A stretch of DNA of 64,000 nucleotides from Owenia fusiformis (taxonomy: Eukaryota; Annelida; Polychaeta; Sabellida; Oweniidae): the NCBI GenBank assembly GCA_903813345.2, contig CAIIXF020000011.1, forward strand, positions 28,824,166-28,888,165. The letters are read 5' to 3'. The notes below the pieces were generated by a model that did no database searches, was not told the origin of the DNA, and worked only from the letters and a program-made list of their open reading frames with translations. Each line of letters starts with the position of its first letter. Position 1 is the first letter of the stretch. Below are positions 17,691-57,143 of the stretch, piece after piece. Made by a program: the position numbers and the translations under genes.

Positions 17691-17814
17691 GTACGCAAGC
17701 ATTCTGAACCACTCGAAATAAAAAAACATTATTCTTATTTTTCAGATTAGCTAAAAAAGACTACGCATAGAATCGGGTCGAACGTTGGATCACATCCGGA
17801 TTTACTTGAACACA

Positions 17815-20376
17815 ATGGCAAACGAACAGAAGACTCAATTAGTCCTAACACCCAGGGATATGTTCTCAAATAACACTCACCTGGGATTATTGAACAAAGG
17901 GGTAGATTATACCAACCCCAGAGAGTGGTATGATACAAAACGGAAGGCGTCGTTTATTGATGAGTTTGTCCACGAGTACAACCGATCAGTTACGGATTTT
18001 TCAGCAACAGCAAAAAATGGCAACTTGGCTGTTTATTTTGCCCTACCTCCTATACAGAAGAGCATGCATGTTCAAGGACGTATAAATAACACTTCAAAGC
18101 AACAGTTATCTAATAAACAACAAAAGGATTTATTTCCAAAGGTGTCTAGCCTTGACCCTAAACAATTGATTAATGGTAAATTTGGCGATAAGAACAGAGG
18201 AAACCAATGTCTTGCCAATAAAGAATCCGAAGTGGCTGTTGACGTCAAACATGAATCAATGGTAGATAAAGTGCTTCAGGAATCGACTTACACGGAAACC
18301 TTTATTACAACATTACCTCGAATAAATGAGGTTGACAATAGCGAGACTGATAATATTCCCATTGTTAGCAGAATCGAGTTACCACAGATAAGCCTCGCTG
18401 AAAGAAATAGGCAAATAAAGATATTGAACCATGGCAATGAACAGAACTCTGTTATTTCAGTCAATACAGACAACAGGACAGGCAATCACAGTTTAGATAA
18501 TTTGGAAAATTCCCTCGATAACATTCCCGAAGAGACACAAACTAAATCGAGGAAGCATGTTATCATTGGAGAAGTACAAGAGAATCTCAATCAAACACAA
18601 TACGATGAGTCAGCATTGAAAATGGAGTCACTGAAAATATTAAAGTATAGGGACTCTAGCACGCTTCCGCATGCGAAAGCCCAGACTAAAATCCCTCTGG
18701 ACAGATACATGATATTGCGAGAAGACTCAAACGTCAGTGGACCTATCGATAGATCACAGTATAGACTTAAACAAAAGTCCATGCTCAAAGTAAAATTAGA
18801 TCATAAAAAGTTGGATAAACAGAGATCAAAGAGTACGGGTGACCTACATAAAGCACCTGAGAGATTAAATCTAACAAACATTAAATCAAAAATCGGACAT
18901 TTGTATAACTCTTATACAAGTTTATTTCGACATGCCACTCCTGGAGATCCTGCTTTAAGGAAGTATAAATCAGACATGTTGCCTGCCATAGAGGGTAATC
19001 TATTGGCCGTTGATACCGTCCCCTGCGTACCCATGTTCCGTTTAGATCACGCCCCTGATAGCAGAGAAGGAGAAGAAATCAGCGGAGTTGGGGCAGTTGC
19101 TTTAGCAAATACTACCAACGAACAAACAAAACATGAACCCGTACAACGTTACAACACAAGGCAGGGTCCAGTGACGTATAAACCAAAGGAAAGTCCTAAA
19201 GCGTCTGTTGTCAATATAACCATAGGAGCAAGGCCTAGCGGAACGCCTTTAAGAAACATGTCTCGACTTGCTGGATGGTCTCCCAGAAATGAGCCTATAA
19301 ACGAGGAGGTTGAGGGGTCAGAAACAGTGAAACCCCCACACATTAATATTGACGATGTCTCAGCTTCAAAAGAAGCCAGTGAACCCGTAGAGACAAACAC
19401 GAGCAGATCAAGTTCGAGAGCATCTACGAACAGTAAAGGTAGCACAAAGTCGAATGATGACAGGAGTGAGAAAATGTCCCCTAGACTTGATTCTCCAACT
19501 AAAAAATCAGTCCATTTTTATGACAACGATGATGAAACCAAATCATACGCTGGAACCATCAGTACAATGAGTCCTACTGGGAGGAAATCCCAGCAGAAGC
19601 CAAAATTGGTCCTAAAGAAATTCAATAAACTTGAGGTGTTTGGTGAACACACTAATCCCAAGACAATCCATTACAGATATAAAAGTGCATCAACTATCGG
19701 GCCTGCTGAGGAGCCTATAGAATATCTTCCCAAATTGAGACCCCCTCAATATAAACTGGATTTGAAGGACTATCCACCAACAAAGCCTCGGAGGGAAATG
19801 AGTGCTAATTCAGATTACACCTATACCACCGATGACTCATGTGATAAGACTACTGTCGATGCTGAAAGTTATCTAGATAGCCATAGCCAGAGAGGTGAGA
19901 TTGACAGTCGATCCCCAACAAGGAAATTTAGTCCACAGAAGCCCAAATCGGGTTTAAGTAGCTATAAAGGTCCGGATCCTTCCATGGCAACATACAGAGA
20001 CACAACAGTGAATGTGCCACAAAGTGTCAAAAGTGGTCTTACTTCTGGTGTAACAAGCACCACGGTTGACGTCACAGAGTCGACATTTGAACTTTCGACA
20101 TCGGAGAGTAGTTCTGATAAAATATCATCAATTGATAAGACAGGTGAATTGAGTAGCATAACCAAAGATACTAATGCAACTGACAGCCCGCGTGAACTTA
20201 ACGAAAATAAGGAAAGTGAAGTGGCCAAAATCAGCTCGGTAAATAATGATAATACAAAAAAATTGACATTAGCAAACGCAACAATATCGAATTCTGATTT
20301 GAAGCCTGCAGTATCAACATCAGATATATCAAGCTTTACACTTTCCGATACAACAGTTACATCGACTTCAGACTAG
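17815..20376 (+). CDS. 853-aa low-complexity, probably disordered protein; family unknown
   Basis: One open coding exon. I place the start at the ATG at 17815 (MANEQKTQ), with A at -3 and G at +4; the open frame upstream has no earlier ATG. A good acceptor (TTATTCTTATTTTTCAG) ends at 17745, so a non-coding 5' exon probably lies upstream. The N-terminal ~75 residues (LVLTPRDMF, NPREWYDTKRKASFIDEF, LAVYFALPPI) look the most ordered. The rest is rich in Ser, Thr, Lys, Asp and Asn with many SP/TP sites, and the last ~130 residues are almost all Ser/Thr/Asp/Lys. There is no signal peptide, membrane span or catalytic motif. I do not recognise the family. A cytoskeletal or scaffold role would fit the composition, but this is speculation. 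Confidence 0.85.
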   Translation: MANEQKTQLVLTPRDMFSNNTHLGLLNKGVDYTNPREWYDTKRKASFIDEFVHEYNRSVTDFSATAKNGNLAVYFALPPIQKSMHVQGRINNTSKQQLSNKQQKDLFPKVSSLDPKQLINGKFGDKNRGNQCLANKESEVAVDVKHESMVDKVLQESTYTETFITTLPRINEVDNSETDNIPIVSRIELPQISLAERNRQIKILNHGNEQNSVISVNTDNRTGNHSLDNLENSLDNIPEETQTKSRKHVIIGEVQENLNQTQYDESALKMESLKILKYRDSSTLPHAKAQTKIPLDRYMILREDSNVSGPIDRSQYRLKQKSMLKVKLDHKKLDKQRSKSTGDLHKAPERLNLTNIKSKIGHLYNSYTSLFRHATPGDPALRKYKSDMLPAIEGNLLAVDTVPCVPMFRLDHAPDSREGEEISGVGAVALANTTNEQTKHEPVQRYNTRQGPVTYKPKESPKASVVNITIGARPSGTPLRNMSRLAGWSPRNEPINEEVEGSETVKPPHINIDDVSASKEASEPVETNTSRSSSRASTNSKGSTKSNDDRSEKMSPRLDSPTKKSVHFYDNDDETKSYAGTISTMSPTGRKSQQKPKLVLKKFNKLEVFGEHTNPKTIHYRYKSASTIGPAEEPIEYLPKLRPPQYKLDLKDYPPTKPRREMSANSDYTYTTDDSCDKTTVDAESYLDSHSQRGEIDSRSPTRKFSPQKPKSGLSSYKGPDPSMATYRDTTVNVPQSVKSGLTSGVTSTTVDVTESTFELSTSESSSDKISSIDKTGELSSITKDTNATDSPRELNENKESEVAKISSVNNDNTKKLTLANATISNSDLKPAVSTSDISSFTLSDTTVTSTSD

Positions 20377-39100: not shown

Positions 39101-42100
39101 CTCGTTTCCTATAAATCGAGGAAATTGATTTGTAAATATCCCAGCAATGGCAGAATTCATTTAAGTTGAGTTGTAATCATATTTTGAAACCGGAACTCAC
39201 GAACTACATACTTGCCGAATATTTTGTTGTGATTTGAAGAATGAACGCACCCTATCTTCGTTTCAAGAGTTCCTCCAGAGAGCTAGACCTGACTTGTACA
39301 AGTACAGGTCTGCGTACGTATTCCATATCGAAACTCCCAAATGAAATTTCCGAGTTAGGATACTAATTTAAGATTTTTGTAATTCAAAAGTTGTTGAATG
39401 TCAACTCAGTAGTTCCAAATAAGTTTCATTGTTGTTTTAATATGTCTTAATATATGTATGTTTTTCATGAATTAAAATGCTAATAAAGCATGTAGTCAAG
39501 AAACCTTCATAAAATATATGAAGGCAAGTGGGTTTTTCAGTTTAGAAAGTCTATTCTCTGAATGTCTTGTTCTGCTTCAACAATATTACGAATTACTGTT
39601 GTATTTCAACGGATTGTGTATATTCTTTATAGAACATATAAATACATTCTGTTTTTAATATTTATATATCCCAGCTGTAAGGTATGATAGTTTGGTTGAT
39701 TAGTTCACTTCTCGAGGAGTCAACAGTATAAACGCATCAGCACTTTAGTGTGGTTTGCCAGAAAACCACATATTTCTATACATTTGCATCGTCGGTGATC
39801 TCAACACTTTCCTGTTTTGCTTTGTCAACTTCATCTTCAATTTTCTCTGAACGGGCATCTGATAAAACATCGACGTCCTCTGTGTGCTCAAGCGTGTATT
39901 TCTTGCCTCTCCAGCCCATGTTAATCAACACATGTTTGTTGCTACGTATACCTGACTTTGGAAGCTGAATGAAGAGATCAACCTTCTCACATGATTCAAC
40001 TCCACTTTGGTCTTCATCCACTTCAAACGGTAAATCAGCTATCGGCCAATCTTCTTTGAAATTTTCAATCACCTCATCGACTTTGCACTTAAATGTACAA
40101 GAGTTTAATTCAATAGGGTCGGCCTTTGAGGACATGAAGTTGCGAAGCATGAACGGGAAGATACCACCAGCCAGCGTGGCGAGCATTTGACTCGTAGAGC
40201 TGACCTTGTAGATGTCACCAAATATACTAACTGTCATCACAAGGAAACCAAGGAAGATAATGATTTGGCCAAAACGTCTCCAAGCATGCAAGAGACTCTT
40301 ATACACAGGACCTGGAGCTCCCGCAACTTGAATTAACGTGATCGCGTAGAACAATTTCACGGGCAGGAAATGCAAATCAAATTTATTTACAAAAAGGACC
40401 AAATCATTGACATTCCAATGCATTGGACGTCTTCTGGCTAATCTGTCGGGCCTCTCGTGCTTTTCCTGTTCAGTTAAGGCCTCTGACTTGAAACCACGAT
40501 TTTCCTGCAAATGGCTTGGACGCTGAGTCAGTTCTGTAACATCATCTTTGACTCGTCCAAATACATCCTTGAAGATTGCCTTGTTAAGGGACAGGTATTT
40601 GAGATAGACGTTATTAAAACAGTCGTATGAATATATGACCAGGAGAAACAGAATTGAAAGATATTTCAGAACAGAGCCAGCGTTAACAATAAGGCCAATG
40701 AGTGTGAAAATAAGCACCTCTAGCCCGAAACCAAGACATTCCGATACCAGGAACACTGTGCACCAAATCCCAAACAGGTACATGATTGGTAGGATAATAC
40801 AGAGAGCTTTATCCATGCAGCCCATAGTTTTAGTGGACGGTTCCGTATCAGAAAGCATGTCCGTCTCTGTTGTGTCTGAATAAACTGAGGTGTTCTTGGG
40901 AAGCTTAGAATAGGAACTAGATACACTTCTATAGATGTGTACAAAGAACCTATATGTTAGATACAAAAGTGGGGCACAGCTTAAGGTGAACAGCACTAAA
41001 CATATAGGAACAGCAATTGGCCAGAATATAAAACTAAAGATGAACCCCAAACAACCCAGAAACCTACACGGCAACAAGAGAAACTCTATCATTTTTCCAA
41101 TTATGGTCATAATGGGAACGTCATGCATATCCACAAAAGAACTTTTTACAATATGTCTATATCTTCCACTTGGCTCAATCTTGAAGAAAAGTTGCAATAG
41201 GATAAGAACTGCATACATTACGTAACAGACTATAAATATTGCATTCTCTGGAAAGAAATACTGTACAAGATGAAGCTCATAGGCTTTGTTAAACCCAAAC
41301 CTATTAGCGAATTCTGACCTACTTGACAATTCCTCTCTTTCAAACACATTGAAGAAAACCAACCTTAGCCAATACGGAAACGGAAATACTAACGTCACGA
41401 GAATCAAACCTGATGATGCGTACCCAATGTGTTTCCATTTGATAGGAAATGTTTCGTTCAGTACTCCACATATGCTAGCGTTGCAACATTTAACACACGC
41501 CCAAAATTTCCTCATCCCACAACGAAAAACTCTATATTTGAGACAAGCAAATAAACCAACGGGGATATGATTTTCTGTGACAACACGGTCCGTTTCTACG
41601 GATAAGATATACTCACTAAATTTAACCTTAACTGGTCTTCCTTTAGGAAAAATTTTAACCGCTTCCTGGAATTTATCAAAATTGTCCAAAGCTTGCGCTG
41701 GCCAATGATGATCAAACTTTACATTTCCGGGGTCTGATGCTACAAGCAATGTCTTCTGGAGTGAGCTTTTGAGGATGACCCTAAATGTATCGGCGCCTCG
41801 TGAAAACATGTACACGGCGCAAGGAATGAGATACGGGACAATAAGAAAAACGGCAATCTTGAGGAATAGTACAAAGTACAGCAGAACGTCGAGAGTAATA
41901 CTCTTAAATTCAACAGCACAAGCCATGTTTTTATCAATATCCACACTGCAGCATTTGTCAACGAATCTGGATGTTGTGGCACTTGTATGAAAGACCTGGT
42001 GACAAATATAGTCATCGTCAGCTATAGTTGGCAAGGGGCTCTCGGAGTTAAAATCTCGACTCAGAAGCCATAGCACATTATCCATTCTGTCCATTTCTGA

Positions 42101-45100
42101 TAACTCTCCAAAACAACCAACTGGCTCATCCTTTAGCACTACCGTATGTTTCTCCACGCCCAATGAGAGCACGGATAAGGACAGGACGTCGTAATTGAAA
42201 TTCATTGTGACCAGAGTTCGTCCGTGTTTAGTAGCCGCCTTTTGCCAAATATTGGCTTTGTAGTTCTCTCTAATAGATTGCTCCAAAAGTGGATTAACAG
42301 TATAGTTCTCAAATTCTAATTCATACTCAATCAGTTTCGCTGATTCAGCATCTGCAAGTGCGTTTCGAATATCATCACTGGTTGGAATCAGTTTGCACTT
42401 CAGCATATCCTGAACGCTGGTCGTGATAGAGTCATTTGCTGTCGCAATCGCATAGGGTGCCTCTGTTGTGTTGCTCACTGGTTTGGTTGAAGTAGCTTGG
42501 GCCTCTCCACCGTGAAGTTGCCAAAAGACACTGACGACTAAAACCGCCCAATGTATCACCGACATTATAAACGAAGGGATGTTGCACGTTTATGATATCT
42601 GGAAAGTATAATTATAAAATGTATCGATCTATTTTCTGTCTGAGGATCAACAGCGTCTATTTTAAAGAAAAGAATGTATGTTCTAGATATGGCAGAATAA
42701 AATACAAAGTATGTGCCTCTGTATACTCGAGTTGTGAATAAAACTTTGCTGCAAAATATAAGTGAATACCGATACCTTCAATCTAATTTGATTGTGATTC
42801 AGCATTTTATTATTAAAGTCTAGACCTAGCTATATTTCTCATTATTCAATTAATAGTTGATGATGGTATATACCTAGTACATGAAATAACCCAGATAGAC
42901 CTTATTTCCTTATTTCAGACTCTTTGCTAAATATAAGTGAACCTCGTACCATTTTCTTAATAACCAATGTTTCATACAATCATGGATTTCCGTCAAAACA
43001 AGGGTTCAATATTCAGTTAGCTTGTATTTAATACTGAAACGTGTATATACAATGTTGAGCCTTTGGAACATGTAACTGCACCGACAATGACAGATCTAGA
43101 TTTTCTTGTAAAAGAAACTCCTACACATCGTTTTTGACAATACTTGAATTTTAGATCAAATATTCACTCCTTTAGTGTAGAAATATTTAAAATGTTCTTT
43201 GTTGATATAAGAGCACGATGTATTTTCGGGTTACTTACAGTGAGTCTATTTGCATGCGTGGAACCTCTGATAAACAATTTCAAACAAGAAGGGTAGACTG
43301 TACTTACCCCTCTGGACGACATTCGTATGTTGGCCAACCTGTTAACCTTCTTCCCTCCCCCTAGTTTAGGATTAACCCACCATTTGATAAATCATATTTC
43401 AAGTGACAAGTTTTAGTGCTATTTATATGTATAATATCTTACCTAGTATTATGCTTCTAAAAGTAAAGTCTTAACCCTTTCTCTCAAGATGCAGACCGTG
43501 TCCTAATTATCCTAAAAATAACTTATCCCTTCAAAGTTTGTAAACATCAGGTATTATAATTATGTTCGACATGCATAGTTCTGTATGCATTTGGCCTTTC
43601 TGAGCATGTGGACGTTTAGATTCTTTCAGTCATATAGAAATACTTGTTATCCGCCCGCGTTCTTTACTTTGAGCCGTTCGTTTATCCTATTATAAATGTA
43701 ATCCAAAATGAAATTCATTATATAAAGTTACTCCGATCTGATGAAAGTTATTTATTTGACATTTGACAATGTTTTCTTTTGTACTCCTGGCGCAATATGA
43801 GGTCCGCGCGGTTGAGTGACAAAAGGCCTTATCGTATTAAAATAATCTCTCGGGTTGATTGGCTTCTATGCACACGATAAACCTTACCCCCCTACCACAC
43901 CAAACTAGTTACCCGTTCTAGCCAGTCCTACGAAAATGTCGTAAAACGGGCTCAGTCTGGCTGCGGTCGGGATATATGTCTAAAATAATTAGCTACTTCG
44001 TTCATAAACAGTCTTCAATACGTCCATCTCATTCGCAGTTCGTTCAGGTCGCACTACGTCGGTGTGCAACGTAGAATGAACCGTCCCTTAGTCTAGAAGG
44101 TCATCATGACCTGATTACAGAACGGTATGGTCGCCATCGAATTTTGAATCGATTCAAAATTCTAAATCACATACCCCGTCCGGGAAAGTCCATGAATTTA
44201 GTAAACAGACCGTAGAACGTTGTAGCTACGTTCATTCAGTTCGCACACAGTTTAAAACCGAATCGGCAACGTTTTGACGATCACCAGAACCATTTTGAGC
44301 ATGCTCTAAGTGCTGGAGGACCTACTCGTTCTAGTAGTTTCATGAAGTTTGTAAACAGATCCCAAACGGTTCTTATTGGGTTCTTAGTACGTCAAATCCG
44401 TTCGTGCACAGTTTAAGCCCGTTTTCGAGAACGTAGTGAGAACTAGTTTGGTGTGATAGTACTTTTAAAATAGCTTGCATTTAGAGATTAGAATGATTTC
44501 ACATATTTTTTAACGGCTGAAATTAAACCTGTTATACATATGCCTTGTTCCGGACCTTAGAATGAGTGCGGTAGCACGAATGTAAAGTCTAGGAAACATA
44601 ACTTTAGTAGATAAAAATCATCCACAATTCATTCACTCGGAGCCATGTGCTAAATTGTTTTCACATATTGCAAAAGATTGTGTTCAGTATCACTTAATTA
44701 AAAGAATGAATTAATATAGCTGCAGTTTACGAGAATGTATTATTTACTTTACAATAGAGTTGCATATACACGTAATGCCACTGGAAAATGAGTCCCTCTT
44801 GTACATTAGAGGGTGTATGTGTCACAGAGGTTAGACAACCAATATCTCTTCTATCAGTCGAATATATTACATCTTTCTATGAAAAATGTGATTATGATAA
44901 ATGAATTTAAATATGCAGTATTGCATTGATGGTGACGAAGAGAAACACTGGGCAAACCACGTACACATAAAATGATGAACTAATTCTGATAATTTTAACG
45001 ACATCTGTTCAGCATTGTAGAGTGTATCTACACAAAAATGTCAAATAACATTAACAAGCTAAATTATTTATATATTTAACAATAACATTATCCTCACTAA

Positions 45101-49179: not shown

Positions 49180-51646
49180 CTAACCAAGAACATACGTGTC
49201 CAGAAGGTCACTAAGGCTGCCGACGATTGCGGCGAACTTAGGATGCCCCGCAACGGTAAGTACTTGACCAACAATGGGAACGAGTACCCGCAGCATCGGT
49301 TTGGCATTCTCCCATGCACCCACTAATGTGGAACGGATGTCCCCGATACTTGATCCGGGCGTCTCGTCTATTTTATCCAAGAAAGCCCTGGCACTGGCCT
49401 TCATCATTCCATGCGGGTCGGTGTAGTATTCATTTCCGAATCCCCACGATACTAAGGCATGCAAAAGCCTATCTCCCTCTTCTTTGCGGTCGGCAGCTTT
49501 ATTATTTATAACGAACACCCGATCATCACAATCATGGCGCAGATTTTTGAGACATTCAGGTGCAGTTTCGAACAAACGATCAATTGAAAGACCACTATCT
49601 TCCAAACCATCCCCGTGTGTGCATAACATAATCGAATAGCGCATCATTCCATCACCGAACAGCTTCTTCATAAATTCAATAACTTTGTTATCTTCCTCGG
49701 TGAAGCGATTAATTTGAATGACAATACAGAAAACATGGGGGCCTGGAACAGCAAGACCAACGCATTTTATAATTTCGGCAAACAGTTGCCTTTCGTCGAA
49801 ACGATTGTCCATAAATCCAGGAGTATCTACGACGATCAATTCCTTATCCTCCATTTTCTTCTTACCAAAGTCGCAAACACTTGTTAGGGAGGCAAAACTG
49901 GGCAAACTCTGGAAAGTATTCTCGCCGAGGATTGTATTGGCGGTACAGCTCTTTCCTGCACCAGTCTTTCCCACGAGTATAAGCCTGAATTCATCCTTTC
50001 CTAGATCTGCCTTTAGATCGTCACCATGGGCTCCAGTATCTGAAAGATATGAGAACATCACTGGTGAGATTACAACGTACAGGGGCGTAGCCAGCTTTCA
50101 GTCAGGAGGGGTGCGATCGCCAAAAAAGGTTTTCAGTCAGGGGTGCGATTGTGGCATAAACAAGCCAAAAATTAAGATTTACCTTGAATTTTACAAAAAT
50201 TGATGCAACTTCCTTCAATTTAAAATTTAGCTAGAAGCTTCAAATAAAATGCATTTTAAAGCTCTTTTCTTATTCTATCTCAATGTTATATTCTTATTGG
50301 TTATTGGGGTGGGGCCACCCATCGCACCCCCCCCCCCCTGGCTACGCCTATGATGTATATAAAAAACAGGGATAACAGCCCAGTACACAAGACCCTCCTA
50401 ATAATCAGGAAAAGTGGATGAACTGAGACTGTCACAACTCGAGCATGTTCCACCTTCCCCTGTGAAGTAATCAAATAGTAAATAATATTTATATAATGAT
50501 ATATAATAAAAACAAACATTTCACATTTCGTCTACCTACAATCATGACAATGCTACGTCCCGTGCGTCTGGCCAACGTTTGATGGCATCCTGATTTACAT
50601 CGTTTTCTCTATTTCATATCCTCGGCTCTTCGACTTACTTTCCGATGAAGACAGGCCCCATTCAGATCAGGAACATGTTTATAAACAGAAATGACCCCAG
50701 GATGTCCTTATAAATTCTGGGCTGTCGGTGTTGTGAACCGGGGCTGTGAAATTTTTTTTTACTCAACAATAAAGCCGATTGAGAAAGAAATGAAAGCACT
50801 AGAAAGAAATAGAACTAGTGGAATAAAAGAGAGACGAGAAAATGAAGAGACAATCTTAAGAGAAACAAAAGGAACTGGAGAAGAAAAGAAGATGAAAAGA
50901 ATAAAAAGCTGGGAAGAGACCCAAACAGAAAAAATAAAACAAGTTAGTACGAAAGGAGGAAGTAAAATTAACTAGAACAACTTGAATCTAATCACAATTA
51001 TTTTTACATTTGGTCGACCTACAATTAAAGATCATTCTGAACTGATTGATTATCAAAACAAAATTATGTTTTGAAATTTGAACTGTGGTCTGAACAGAGA
51101 TCTACGTGGTGGCACAGAAACCAACAGGTGCCAGTACAATAGCTTTTTATATATTTGATGAAAATCATTATGGTTGACAAAATCCATGTGACCCTCCTGC
51201 ATACAGACACTGACGCCCGTCAGTGCAAGACACCCCCGAGAAGACACCTTTTCAAAGTGCGTTAAAATTTGCGTTCCATTCCAATTGTAAAAAGTATGCC
51301 TTGGTAACCAAAGTATATTCAGGTATAATCAATAATGCAACTGGCTTACTGTAGTATTTCGTTGCGATGTTGTTGTTTGTTCAATATAACCTTGCTTTAT
51401 ACAACTCACTATTTTACCAAATTACAAATTTACCTATTTACAAATTACCATTTTACTGATGTACATGTACTTACCATGTTCTGATGTGATCACTGGTTGA
51501 GCAGAAGCACTAGATGTTTCTGCATTATCCGTGAAATTCTCTGGATGCAAGAATCTTTGTCTGTGTTCGGAGTCCTTTTTAAAACAGCTGTCCCAGTATC
51601 TGCACAACTCCTTGTCAGTCGCTCCTGTCTCAACCCAATCAGACAT
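49180..51646 (-). CDS. AIG1/GIMAP-type GTPase with N-terminal PBZ zinc finger, 2 exons, 343 aa
   Basis: Exon 1 (51646-51475) ends at a GTAAGT donor and exon 2 (50039-49180) starts after CTTTCAG. Both are phase 1 and the join keeps frame. The ATG at 51646 has A at -3. Exon 1 encodes C15-x5-C21-x6-H28-x5-H34-P35 with K12 before the first Cys, Tyr17, aromatic-basic F22-K23 and F32. This is the PBZ finger pattern known from APLF and CHFR, which binds poly(ADP-ribose). The usual Gly after the Tyr is Trp here. Exon 2 is a complete AIG1 G domain: P-loop GKTGAGKS (81-88), DTPG (129-132) and THGDGL (198-203) in the G4 position. A moderately hydrophobic C-terminus follows (~306-340), possibly a membrane contact. 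GIMAPs are septin-like GTPases linked to immune cell survival and defence. PAR recognition is inferred. Confidence 0.88.
50083..50352. repeat. GTAGCCAG-type inverted-repeat element in the PBZ-GIMAP intron
   Basis: Begins CAGGGGCGTAGCCAGC and ends CTGGCTACGCCTATG, with GGGGTGCGATCGC facing ATCGCACCCC next to a C-run. It lies within 50 bp of the exon 2 acceptor. Confidence 0.75.
50353..51474 (-). other. Remainder of the PBZ-GIMAP intron
   Basis: Holds a purine-rich tract at about 50780-50970 that is open in one frame but has coding-unlike composition. No additional exon is evident. Confidence 0.4.
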
Positions 51647-53942: not shown

Positions 53943-56012
53943 AAGCAATATTAATAGAACTTTTAGTCGCGTCTAGTGCGTGACATATTTTAGATAATTT
54001 ATCAACGGAAGAATATTTGTAGAAGAATATTATAAGCACTTTAGAGATGTTATAAAACAATGGCAGCCAGAATCTCTAATTAGCTTGTACTTGGCATAAG
54101 AACAGCTATTCTGTTATAACTATAACACTGTACACTGGTGATTTCCCCACATAAACTTCTGGAGGTATTGGTTTTTCACTATCGTCAAGAGTGGCCTCCA
54201 TACAGTAAGGCATCAATAGAATCTAAATCGAATAAAACGGTTTTATAACATCTTTAAAGCTACTTAAATGCAAATCCAATTCCATTCATATACAAGAAAG
54301 TGTAAAACAAGTTTATGCTGTTTCACGTGGCTCTATATCGAAAGTTTGTATTACTATATTAATAAAGTCATTTCAAGTTCTTCGACGTAAATAACCAAGG
54401 TCAGTTCAGTAAAATATTGGCAAAGTACTTGAACGAAATAAATCATTGATGCTAACTAAGAGATACCAAGGTAAATATCCTTTGTGCTCGAAGTACTTTT
54501 AATGTAGGTGACGAATTCGATCTTATCAGTACAAGCAAAGATGGACTTATTCAATTGTAGATTGCCAAAACTTGAAAGATTTGGTCTGAGGTAACTTTCC
54601 TAAGTATAACTAAGCCTCATAGTCACATATGCTCCACGGCGGGCGTAGCTTCTGATCGATATACAAAATCTACATCATACGGCCTATCCCTATATTTTAT
54701 GCTGCAATCGATTTTGGGATCAGCTACGGCCGCCGTATGGCTGCCGTAGATCAAATGTGTCTGAGGAATTAGAAGGCTCGGTTGCTCAATTTCCAGTTTA
54801 TTTGTTTTAATTTTTCACTTTTACACCCTCTGTTCTTTGTTACCACTTCAATATTTATTTATCATATTTTCAGATACAAGTTTACAATATGAACAGGTTA
54901 TTACAAAAATTCCAACAGAGTCGTAACATTTATTGGACAATTTGTTGATAACTCTTGACAATACAAGTGCTTGAAAGAGGCAATAAAAGCTGATCCAAAG
55001 GGTACTACGTATGGTATAGCTTACATTGAGATCATCAAACGGCATCACATTGCACTCAATTACTAAGATGACAGTGCACGTACAAGGTGACCCAGAAATG
55101 CAGCTCACCTTTTGAATAACTTCGTTAGTTTTGTTGGAATCTTTGCTTCTTGCGTAAAACCTAGAGTGCAAAACACGTAAAATAATAACTGATCTTGCAC
55201 CAACGACTTTGAGGTTTGGAAAAACCATTCGTTCCGTACTCGCATCACAGGTTTACGATTTGAACCTATTCAAGGAAATGCGTCATTACATAGAGAGTTA
55301 TTTCAAATTTAGCTAAATTCTCTTGGGGTCACCCTGTAAATACAAACAATGCGTGTGTGATTGCCTATCCTATCTCAAACAATGTGGGGCGTGTGGTTTA
55401 TGCTTCCGCTACACATTAGCTAGGATTTTAAAATGCAAAGTTAATTATGCCAATTTACGGTAGACTGTGTATTTTATTTATTTATTTATTTATTTATTTA
55501 CAGTGTCACCCGTAATTATACGGCCAGCCTCCAAAGGCTTATGAGACACAATTACAATTATATTATAAGGAGATAAGTTAGAATTAACACTTAAGATATT
55601 ATATGACGACATACATGTCCGCAAGTAATAACAAAAGTCATCCCTCTGAGCACACCTTTCAATAGACATTACTGCAAGCTGAATATATGAGGATATCTTA
55701 CAGGTGAAGTGCAGTGAAAACAAGTTAAAAACAAACAAGCAGACAAATAAAACTATGCCTTAACACCTTCTACTTAAATTGAACAAACAAGAGCTACGTA
55801 CGATAAGAAGAGTTTGCAACGAAATAGAAAAATTACTCGATAAGGGAGTTGATGTACTAGATATAGTCGGCGGTATACAATATCATCCCATTGTAGAATC
55901 TGATAAGAAGTCTCAAATTCTATGAATCCTGAGGATGTACTTCACCACAGAATTAATATCTTTATTTTGGAATGCGAATTGGAGTATCTGAACAACATCT
56001 AAGAAGGTCATC
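53943..56012. other. Intergenic region upstream of the GPCR gene
   Basis: Apart from the MITE at 54609-54770 and a (TTTA)n microsatellite at 55471-55500, I see no exon or RNA gene. The GPCR promoter should lie in the right part. Confidence 0.45.
54609..54770. repeat. CCTCGGTCACATATG-type MITE, copy 2
   Basis: AGCCTCATAGTCACATATGC at the left faces GATCAAATGTGTCTGAGG at the right. It shares the CTATATTTTATGCTGCA block with the copy at 34624-34862. Confidence 0.7.
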
Positions 56013-57143
56013 ATGGATAATTTAACAACTATGGGTATGTTCATTTCAGATTCGATGGATAAAGCTACAGCTGAAACAATGAAACTTGCCAATGATTGCA
56101 TCGCTGTGCCATACCATCAAAGGATCAACTATGTAGATTGTGGTGTAGACGCTGACGATATTACGTTCTGTGCAATTTTAGATACGTTCGAGCTGGTGAA
56201 ATCAGCATTGCTGACTTTGTTATGTGTTATAGCTATTATTGCGAATGTCACTACTCTAATTGCAACGTTTCATGTTAAACCACCACGCAAGGCACACCAC
56301 TATCTGTTCAGAAACCTGTTCATCGTCGACATCCTAGCGTCCGTAGCGCAGTTGGTGAACGCTTCGAGGAGCCTTGTCGGATCCCTGGAATTTGAAATCC
56401 TTCCAGTGCAAAACACGAAACTAAACTACACCGTGACGTACGCCCCGTTATGTGCTGCATTCTCATGTTCAGTGTTTGCGCTCCTTGGTTTGGCCATACA
56501 GCGATACATCGCCGTTTGTTACCCGTTACATCATAGCTCCATCTGTACGAAACGCAATGCATCAATTTATATCACGTGTAGTTGGATGGTGGCGATAATT
56601 CTGGGAGTTCTAGTCCTCATGTGGTCTGCCTGTGTTCTGCCAGTGAAAGACTTTTTGCTACCCATAATTCCTGCTATTGGACTTTTCCTGATTCTCATCA
56701 TCATCGGCATGTGCTTCTGGGTTTACGCCAAGACACGGCAAGCCATGGCAAACTTCAGGCTACTACAAGAAAAAGCCAGCAAAAATCGTCGTAAAAGCAT
56801 CAAAGATAGCCACAATGCTATCATAACAACGCTACTCCTGACGCTGACGTTGATCATCTCTATCATACCGTTCCTCGTCACTAGTGTTTTTATACTGAGC
56901 AAATTCAACGTTCCGCGCTGGTTGAACGCACTGACAGACGGTCTACTGTTTTTGAACTACATCTCCGATCCAATTATATATCCCCTCAGAACAAGGGACA
57001 TGCAGGAAGCATATAAAAGAATGTGGAGACGATGTGGGTGTACGTGTTGTAGTAAACAGAGTGAAAACACGTCAAAATATTCAACTCCGAAGATTAGAAC
57101 TGTTTCTATGACAACAACAACATCAGAAATATCAACATTGTAA
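56013..57143 (+). CDS. Class A (rhodopsin-type) GPCR, intronless, 376 aa
   Basis: The ATG at 56013 has A at -3 and G at +4. The extracellular N-terminus (~60 aa) has a sequon at N3. Seven spans lie near 62-86, 98-120, 144-170, 184-207, 214-240, 268-296 and 305-326. Class A landmarks are N78 in TM1, D106 in TM2 (NLFIVDILAS), R164 at the base of TM3 and W191 in TM4. Key motifs deviate: QRY (163-165) replaces E/DRY, SIIPF stands where CWxP is expected in TM6, and DPIIY (319-323) replaces NPxxY. A Cys cluster CGCTCC (341-346) is a likely palmitoylation site. The short second extracellular loop and overall layout recall the MECO cluster (melanocortin, EDG, cannabinoid, adenosine), but the ligand cannot be read from sequence. 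Confidence 0.93.
   Translation: MDNLTTMGMFISDSMDKATAETMKLANDCIAVPYHQRINYVDCGVDADDITFCAILDTFELVKSALLTLLCVIAIIANVTTLIATFHVKPPRKAHHYLFRNLFIVDILASVAQLVNASRSLVGSLEFEILPVQNTKLNYTVTYAPLCAAFSCSVFALLGLAIQRYIAVCYPLHHSSICTKRNASIYITCSWMVAIILGVLVLMWSACVLPVKDFLLPIIPAIGLFLILIIIGMCFWVYAKTRQAMANFRLLQEKASKNRRKSIKDSHNAIITTLLLTLTLIISIIPFLVTSVFILSKFNVPRWLNALTDGLLFLNYISDPIIYPLRTRDMQEAYKRMWRRCGCTCCSKQSENTSKYSTPKIRTVSMTTTTSEISTL

What the first reader, a model, noticed from the sequence alone, without database searches (positions are those of the whole stretch)
49180..51646. PBZ zinc finger fused to an AIG1/GIMAP GTPase
Seen: an 57-codon first exon with C-x5-C-x6-H-x5-H-P, a Lys three residues before the first Cys, and aromatic/basic residues at the expected places, splicing in phase to a complete GIMAP G domain. 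Known: PBZ fingers in APLF and CHFR bind poly(ADP-ribose), and GIMAPs are immunity-related septin-like GTPases. Inference: a GTPase recruited to or regulated by PAR chains, perhaps in infection or DNA-damage signalling. I know of no described PBZ-GIMAP protein.
Basis: partly seen in the sequence, partly recalled or inferred. Interest (0 to 1): 0.85.

Follow-up and report, generated by a model that had tools for sequence, protein, structure and literature searches.

The report
PAR-binding finger fused to GIMAP GTPase
This animal gene joins a small zinc finger of the kind that reads poly(ADP-ribose), a cell-stress signal, to an immunity-type GTPase, and sister genes in the same genome suggest that the pairing is a real, repeated design and not a chance alignment.

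Summary
Exon 1 (51646-51475, minus) scores above Pfam's cut-off for PBZ; exon 2 (50039-49180) is a full AIG1/GIMAP GTPase; GT-AG, phase 1, 343 aa. No transcript evidence was available, but the genome gives an independent test. Of 11 PBZ matches over the cut-off in 498 Mb, 5 lie under 5 kb upstream, same strand, of an AIG1 exon, and these are the five top-scoring AIG1 exons; I found no finger before the other 19 strong ones. Three sisters carry a diverged PBZ-like finger (below Pfam's threshold) plus a PBZ finger, behind a myristoylation-like start. Between them the finger and AIG1 exons stay alignable while introns do not. The same two-finger leader sits in phase before a cGAS-like (Mab-21) exon on C10; the second finger of these four genes shows dN/dS 0.03-0.09. 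So PBZ, reported mainly in DNA-damage proteins, may serve here as an input module of immune-type effectors. PAR binding is inferred: the window finger keeps zinc ligands and the key Tyr, but has W for the consensus G, and F and K at two contact positions. I found no printed PBZ-GIMAP in the open-licence library.

The parts
51475..51646 (-). Exon 1: start codon, PBZ finger and Ser/acidic tail (57 codons + 1 nt, phase 1 donor)
   Evidence: PF10283 29.1 bits
51539..51613 (-). PBZ zinc-finger core (genome place C11:28875704-28875778)
   Evidence: 29.5 bits, cut-off 22.7; gap-free alignment to APLF PBZ fingers
50040..51474 (-). Intron (GT-AG, phase 1)
   Evidence: the six modelled PBZ-effector genes all have a phase-1 GT-AG intron here, acceptors chosen by eye
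49180..50039 (-). Exon 2: AIG1/GIMAP G domain plus C-terminal tail, stop codon included
49471..49986 (-). AIG1 domain match (P-loop [20 protein letters not shown] motifs)
   Evidence: 164 bits, E 6.8e-46; alignments to GIMAP4 and GIMAP5

Best explanation
The window gene encodes a GIMAP-type GTPase with an N-terminal PAR-reading zinc finger, one of five PBZ-GIMAP genes in this genome. Most likely the finger binds poly(ADP-ribose) made on proteins during infection or stress and so places the GTPase where a PARP is active. Because one PBZ binds PAR less tightly than a tandem, GTP-driven assembly of the G domain would multiply the fingers and make binding avid, so that the protein gathers only where PAR and the GTP state coincide. 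Shown: the two open exons with splice signals in phase, the repeated architecture, purifying selection on the second finger of the two-finger sisters. Inferred: splicing of this copy, PAR binding, avidity, immune role.
For: Exon 1 passes the PBZ cut-off and aligns to APLF PBZ fingers without gaps. 5 of 11 PBZ hits precede AIG1 exons, the five top-scoring of 35; chance 1.2e-17. 6 of 6 final introns are GT-AG, phase 1. Between the C1:13.8M and C3:27.4M sisters BLASTN finds the first-finger exon (76%), the second-finger exon (76%) and the AIG1 exon (78%), plus one 76-bp partial copy of the AIG1 start, and nothing in the introns; C3:8.0M against each gives the three exons only. dN/dS of the second finger 0.03-0.09 in 6 of 6 pairs of four genes. 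The C3:27.4M AIG1 frame has no Met between its preceding stop and the P-loop, so it needs an upstream exon. APLF contacts Y381/Y386/R387 (legend in PMC6264785) read Y/F/K in the window and Y/Y/R in C4. Tandem PBZ binds over 1000-fold better than one (passage in PMC4030884).
Against: No RNA evidence. Four of the five AIG1 frames, the window's included (28 residues before the P-loop), have an in-frame Met upstream of the P-loop, so a separate start cannot be excluded for this copy alone. The window and C4 genes align at DNA level only in 73 bp of AIG1, and the window not at all with two two-finger sisters tried, so the exon-only conservation is shown for the sisters, not for the window exon. The finger nearest to the window's is that of two non-GIMAP genes (58% over the core). 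The consensus Gly is Trp and Arg387 is Lys. The AIG1 tree does not join the five (3 changes; 1% of bootstrap trees), though one origin is not rejected (p-AU 0.234). Single-sequence fold models were too poor to use.
Confidence: 0.6

Rival explanations
1. The fusion is real but the finger no longer reads PAR: it is a zinc-stabilised leader for protein contact, RNA binding or oligomerisation.
For: The first finger of the four two-finger genes has lost the Tyr/Tyr/Arg contacts yet keeps four zinc ligands, shares a motif of its own ([QK]F-x-DC ... IHSxDIP) and does not match Pfam's PBZ model (two of them scanned); the consensus Gly is Trp or Phe in all ten fingers compared; PBZ structures resemble ssRNA-binding C3H1 tandem fingers (passage in PMC4030884).
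Against: The second fingers and the C4 finger keep Tyr and Arg, three of them (C4, C3:27.4M, C10) the full Y/Y/R; the window has Y/F/K.
Confidence: 0.27
2. Gene-model artefact: exon 1 belongs to another gene or is a relic, and the GIMAP starts at an in-frame Met in the presumed intron.
For: In-frame Met 28 residues upstream of the P-loop in the window, and such a Met in 4 of 5 genes; no transcript evidence; the finger exon of this copy is not alignable at DNA level to the sisters tried.
Against: Same order, strand and phase in four sisters; exon-only conservation between the two-finger sisters; one sister has no Met available.
Confidence: 0.07
3. The PBZ-GIMAP acts in DNA-damage signalling, not immunity: PAR at breaks recruits a GTPase, as it recruits APLF.
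For: PBZ is described as found primarily in DNA-damage proteins (passage in PMC4245714); the nearest finger is that of two genes at C1:51.7M and 52.8M, one beside an F-box frame and one beside a BRCT frame; another PBZ here lies beside a DNA-ligase-3 BRCT frame.
Against: Three sisters have myristoylation-like starts and the C4 protein ends in CaaX-like CNIM, both pointing to membranes (motifs recalled; the window protein has neither); GIMAPs and the cGAS-like partner are immune-type families.
Confidence: 0.06

Closest known systems
APLF (tandem PBZ fingers, human; PDB 2kqb, 2kuo)
   Same: Zinc ligands and spacing, Lys/Arg before first Cys, Tyr after it, [F/Y]xHP ending; gap-free alignment
   Different: W for G; F and K for Y386 and R387; one finger; fused to a GTPase (APLF's own other parts are named from PMC6264785 passages and recall)
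Vertebrate GIMAP4/5/7/2
   Same: Whole AIG1 domain with GKTG-GKS, DTP, TxxD/E-like and NN motifs
   Different: No vertebrate GIMAP with a zinc finger is known to me (recall, not searched); here an extra N-terminal exon adds one
Biomphalaria glabrata AIG family with N-terminal death domain, kinase or ARM fold (PMC7053062, passages)
   Same: Invertebrate AIG1 GTPases that recruit different N-terminal domains
   Different: 'zinc finger' occurs 0 times in its main text; the figure with all 19 architectures was not seen
cGAS-like receptors / Mab-21 proteins (PDB 8gjy, MID51)
   Same: The frame at C10:22.055M has both Mab-21 domains
   Different: Preceded by the same two-finger leader as the GIMAPs; no held paper has both 'cGAS-like receptor' and 'PBZ'

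Membership tests
PBZ (PF10283) | Score over Pfam's curated cut-off (22.7 bits) | tested here: met
   29.1 bits exon 1; 24.7 joined protein. Second fingers and the C4 finger also pass; first fingers of the two-finger genes do not match
PBZ (PF10283) | Four zinc ligands, C-x5-C-x6-H-x5-H as in APLF | tested here: met
   sister second fingers have x7, one x9; the consensus printed in PMC4030884 has seven residues here
PBZ (PF10283) | [K/R] three before first Cys, [F/Y] two after it, two basic residues after second Cys, [F/Y]xH end (consensus as printed in PMC4030884) | tested here: met
   K, Y, KK, FLH
PBZ (PF10283) | Gly after the [F/Y] of the printed consensus | tested here: not met
   W in the window; W or F in the ten effector-gene fingers compared; G in APLF
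PBZ (PF10283) | Adenine/phosphate contacts Y381, Y386, R387 of APLF | tested here: inconclusive
   Y, F, K in the window; Y, Y, R in C4
PBZ (PF10283) | Binds poly(ADP-ribose) | not testable with these tools
   needs a binding assay
AIG1/GIMAP GTPase | AIG1 domain over cut-off | tested here: met
   162.6 bits, cut-off 27
AIG1/GIMAP GTPase | GTP-binding motifs ([19 protein letters not shown]) | tested here: met
   alignment to GIMAP4 and GIMAP5
AIG1/GIMAP GTPase | Membrane anchor at the C-terminus | tested here: inconclusive
   best 19-residue Kyte-Doolittle mean in the C-terminal part of the window frame 1.38, four sisters 1.46-1.56
AIG1/GIMAP GTPase | Coiled coil after the G domain | not tested
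   no coiled-coil program was run; the low-confidence model shows C-terminal helices
AIG1/GIMAP GTPase | GTP binding, hydrolysis, oligomerisation | not testable with these tools
   needs protein
cGAS-like receptor (C10 partner gene) | Mab-21 nucleotidyltransferase and C-terminal domains | tested here: met
   55.3 and 50.7 bits, cut-offs 24.1; best PDB match cGAS-like receptor 1, E 6.4e-23, next MID51 5e-19
cGAS-like receptor (C10 partner gene) | Makes a cyclic dinucleotide on ligand binding | not testable with these tools
   GS and DEFD-type motifs seen by eye in the frame; activity unknown, and MID51-type proteins are not synthases (recall)

The most novel reading that the evidence does not exclude
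In this animal lineage the PBZ finger has left DNA repair and become a mobile PAR-sensing input module for innate immunity: a two-finger leader was put in front of both GIMAP GTPases and a cGAS-like receptor, with part of its upstream DNA, so that PARP activity gates two different immune outputs through one reader.
Probability: 0.4. Interest if true: 0.85.

Novelty: new variant of a known kind. Interest (0 to 1): 0.66.

Why it matters
What GIMAPs sense in invertebrates is open (as far as I know; the snail paper calls their role uncertain). A built-in PAR reader names a candidate signal and makes the question testable with a simple binding assay. A shared reader on GIMAPs and a cGAS-like protein would link ADP-ribosylation to two arms of innate immunity, and it would take PBZ outside the DNA-damage setting in which it was primarily found (PMC4245714 passage).

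Tried and rejected
Single-sequence AlphaFold of exon 2 (pLDDT 40) and exon 1 (pLDDT 62, mostly one helix) gave no usable model; no fold search was made on them. An 11.4-bit half-finger match upstream of the C3:7.05M GIMAP pair was set aside because it lies outside the stretches shared by the two inverted copies. The five PBZ-GIMAPs as one clade: not recovered, not rejected. The effector after the three fingers at C10:3.89M: none seen by eye among the open frames of about 18 kb downstream, and none listed there. The TTCTCAGAA upstream motif seemed over-frequent in the fetched loci (24 in 240 kb, overlapping loci counted twice), but 15 of the 24 sit in one tandem array in L022. The organism: contigs C1 to C12 carry hits, nine of them seen at 32-62 Mb and hits beyond 31 Mb on C9 and C12 (C5 length not seen), and the genome has 498 Mb; this fits Owenia fusiformis (505.8 Mb, 12 chromosome-scale scaffolds, passage in PMC9977687) but was not tested. 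No animal genome other than G000 could be searched, so conservation in other species is open, and InterPro architecture lists could not be consulted. 'Not described' rests on 0 papers. Looser searches were seen as listings only: GIMAP with ADP-ribose, 46 papers, 12 listed, none opened; 19 papers, 10 listed; 19 papers, 8 listed; of these only PMC4245714 was opened, passages; 195 papers, 8 listed, none opened; nothing here rests on it.

Full report
The gene. On the minus strand, ATG 51646 opens a 57-codon exon that ends in a GT donor at 51474; an AG acceptor at 50041-50040 opens a second exon that runs to a stop at 49180. The joined protein has 343 residues. Exon 1 alone matches the PBZ model at 29.1 bits (cut-off 22.7); in the joined protein PBZ scores 24.7 and AIG1 162.6 bits (cut-off 27). 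The PDB chains nearest to exon 1 are the APLF PBZ domains, and those nearest to exon 2 are human GIMAP4, 5, 7 and 2.

A test by paralogues. Without RNA, the best test is whether the same genome repeats the pairing. G000 (498 Mb) holds 22 PBZ matches at E up to 10, of which 11 pass the cut-off. It lists 35 AIG1 matches at E up to 0.001; I counted the 24 with E below 1e-27 as GIMAPs and left out 11 weaker ones, none within 400 kb of a PBZ hit over the cut-off by the listed places. Both lists are lower bounds by the tool's own note. Five of the 11 PBZ hits lie 0.5-4.4 kb upstream, same strand, of one of the 24: the window, C4:24.96M, C3:8.02M, C1:13.84M and C3:27.42M. They are the five highest-scoring of the 35. 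Random placement would give five or more within 5 kb with a probability of 1.2e-17.

GIMAPs without a finger. For the other 19 GIMAPs I fetched roughly 3-9 kb upstream and scanned all six frames with a model made from nine fingers of this genome and two of APLF. The eight fingers found scored 26.6-57.7 bits; six of these were in the model, so their scores are partly by construction. The next best match in the scanned loci had 11.4 bits and is not shared by the inverted sister copy. One real first finger, that of C3:27.4M, scored only 14.5 bits, so a strongly decayed finger could have been missed.

Two-finger sisters. C3:8.02M, C1:13.84M and C3:27.42M each have a first, PBZ-like exon (a) and a second, PBZ exon (b) before the AIG1 exon. 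The a fingers do not reach Pfam's PBZ model; I call them PBZ-like from their ligands and position. The a|b intron is phase 2 and the last finger|effector intron phase 1, all GT-AG (acceptors were chosen by eye, so phase alone is weak evidence). BLASTN between the C1 and C3:27.4M genes finds four blocks: exon a (76% over 106), exon b (76% over 117), the AIG1 exon (78% over 881) and a partial second copy of the AIG1 start (74% over 76). C3:8.0M against each of the two shows the three exon blocks and nothing else. dN/dS for exon b is 0.03-0.09 in 6 of 6 pairs of four genes (three GIMAPs and C10), over 29 codons, with dS above 1 and so near saturation, one two-codon insertion left out; for exon a it is 0.11-0.45 in the 7 of 10 pairs of five loci that could be computed, three being saturated. 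The AIG1 frame of C3:27.4M has no Met between the preceding stop and the P-loop, so it must be spliced to an upstream exon; the other four frames have one. The three proteins start MGNSSSK, MGQKPSK and MGGAQSR, a myristoylation-like signature (recalled); the C4 protein ends CNIM, CaaX-like (recalled). The window protein has neither.

A cGAS-like partner. The a+b pair also stands at C10:22.06M, where the next recognisable coding exon is a Mab-21/cGAS-like frame: 55.3 and 50.7 bits for its two domains, best PDB match 'cGAS-like receptor 1' E 6.4e-23, MID51 next, joined in phase 1 by GT-AG. Fingers a and b of C10 match those of the GIMAPs at 68-82% DNA identity, and dN/dS of its b finger against the three GIMAPs is 0.04-0.09. 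A further block of 49-66 bp at 78-81% identity lies 160-356 bp upstream of the ATG in C10, C1 and C3:27.4M; it contains TTCTCAGAA in these three, which fits the STAT site TTCN3GAA (recalled). C3:8.0M, C4 and the window have no TTCN3GAA in the 658-1000 bp scanned. A genome search with the C10 block found only itself; as it missed the two known copies at about 80%, it shows only that the block is not a close-copy repeat. By the listed places, 1 of 35 Mab-21 matches lies within 5 kb downstream of a PBZ hit. The C10 splice rests on phase, strand, proximity (2.3 kb) and shared leader, and its Mab-21 frame has in-frame Mets of its own. I put this fusion at about 0.75.

What the fingers can do. APLF uses Y381, Y386 and R387 for adenine and phosphate (legend in PMC6264785). 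At these places the window has Y, F, K; C4 has Y, Y, R; the b fingers of C3:8.0M, C1, C3:27.4M and C10 have Y throughout, then H, K, Y, Y, then R throughout; the a fingers have Q, Q, K, Q, then V, E, G, E, then N, N, D, D. So the window finger and the b fingers could bind PAR, the a fingers probably not in the APLF way. The consensus Gly is Trp (window, C4, b) or Phe (a). Tandem PBZ domains can bind PAR independently, but two together bind over 1000-fold better (PMC4030884 passage). My model is that a GIMAP which assembles with GTP presents several fingers at once, so that one finger suffices. That is inference.

Origins. The window finger is nearest to the finger shared by two genes at C1:51.7M and C1:52.8M (53% over 31 residues; 58% over the core), one lying near an F-box frame and the other near a BRCT frame; their gene models were not built. 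The AIG1 tree places the three two-finger sisters together (100/99) but not all five (3 changes). One or several captures are both possible. The remaining PBZ hits over the cut-off are beside a DNA-ligase-3 BRCT frame (C1:54.8M), at C2:29.6M and at C8:21.4M.

Comparison with print. Searches of the open-licence library for PBZ with GIMAP, zf-CCHH with AIG1, and PBZ with cGAS-like receptor gave 0 papers each; wider searches were seen as listings. A survey of PAR systems states that PBZ was primarily found in DNA-damage proteins, and its main text holds neither 'GTPase' nor 'AIG1' (find passages of PMC4245714). Snail AIG proteins are known to carry N-terminal death domains, kinases or ARM folds (passages of PMC7053062). 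So the architecture is a new variant within a known habit of invertebrate AIG1 proteins.

Verdict. Architecture about 0.93 likely to be real; PAR-reading GTPase about 0.6; a shared immune PAR module about 0.4.

Noticed in passing
L037 (G000:C10:22049500-22059400, minus strand): Same two-finger leader in phase before a Mab-21/cGAS-like exon; a candidate PBZ-cGAS-like receptor.
   Followed up: yes
L041 1254-2004 (G000:C10:3.8899-3.8906M): One a-type and two b-type fingers (the two b fingers in one open frame) with no AIG1 or Mab-21 frame seen in about 18 kb downstream.
   Followed up: partly
upstream of ATG in L037/L038, L039, L040: A conserved 49-66 bp block holding TTCTCAGAA (STAT-like, recalled) shared by two PBZ-GIMAPs and the PBZ-cGAS-like gene.
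   Followed up: partly
L016, L039, L040 first exons; L017 C-terminus: Myristoylation-like starts MGxxxS[K/R] in the three two-finger GIMAPs and a CaaX-like end CNIM in the C4 gene.
   Followed up: no
L022 2396-4556 (G000:C4:31.671-31.674M): A tandem array, 15 copies of TTCTCAGAA spaced 124-296 bp, between GIMAP genes of the C4 cluster.
   Followed up: no
G000:C4:22.3-24.92M: 11 of the 35 Mab-21 matches lie in this stretch, on the contig that also holds six GIMAPs at 31.66-31.69M.
   Followed up: no
L019, just upstream of the AIG1 exon: A partial second copy of the AIG1 exon start (76 bp, 74%) beside the intact one.
   Followed up: no
window 17755-20373 (+), 39779-42589 (-), 55992-57140 (+): Other long open frames in the window: an 873-aa frame, a 937-aa membrane-protein-like frame, a 383-aa GPCR-like frame (kinds judged by eye, not searched).
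   Followed up: no
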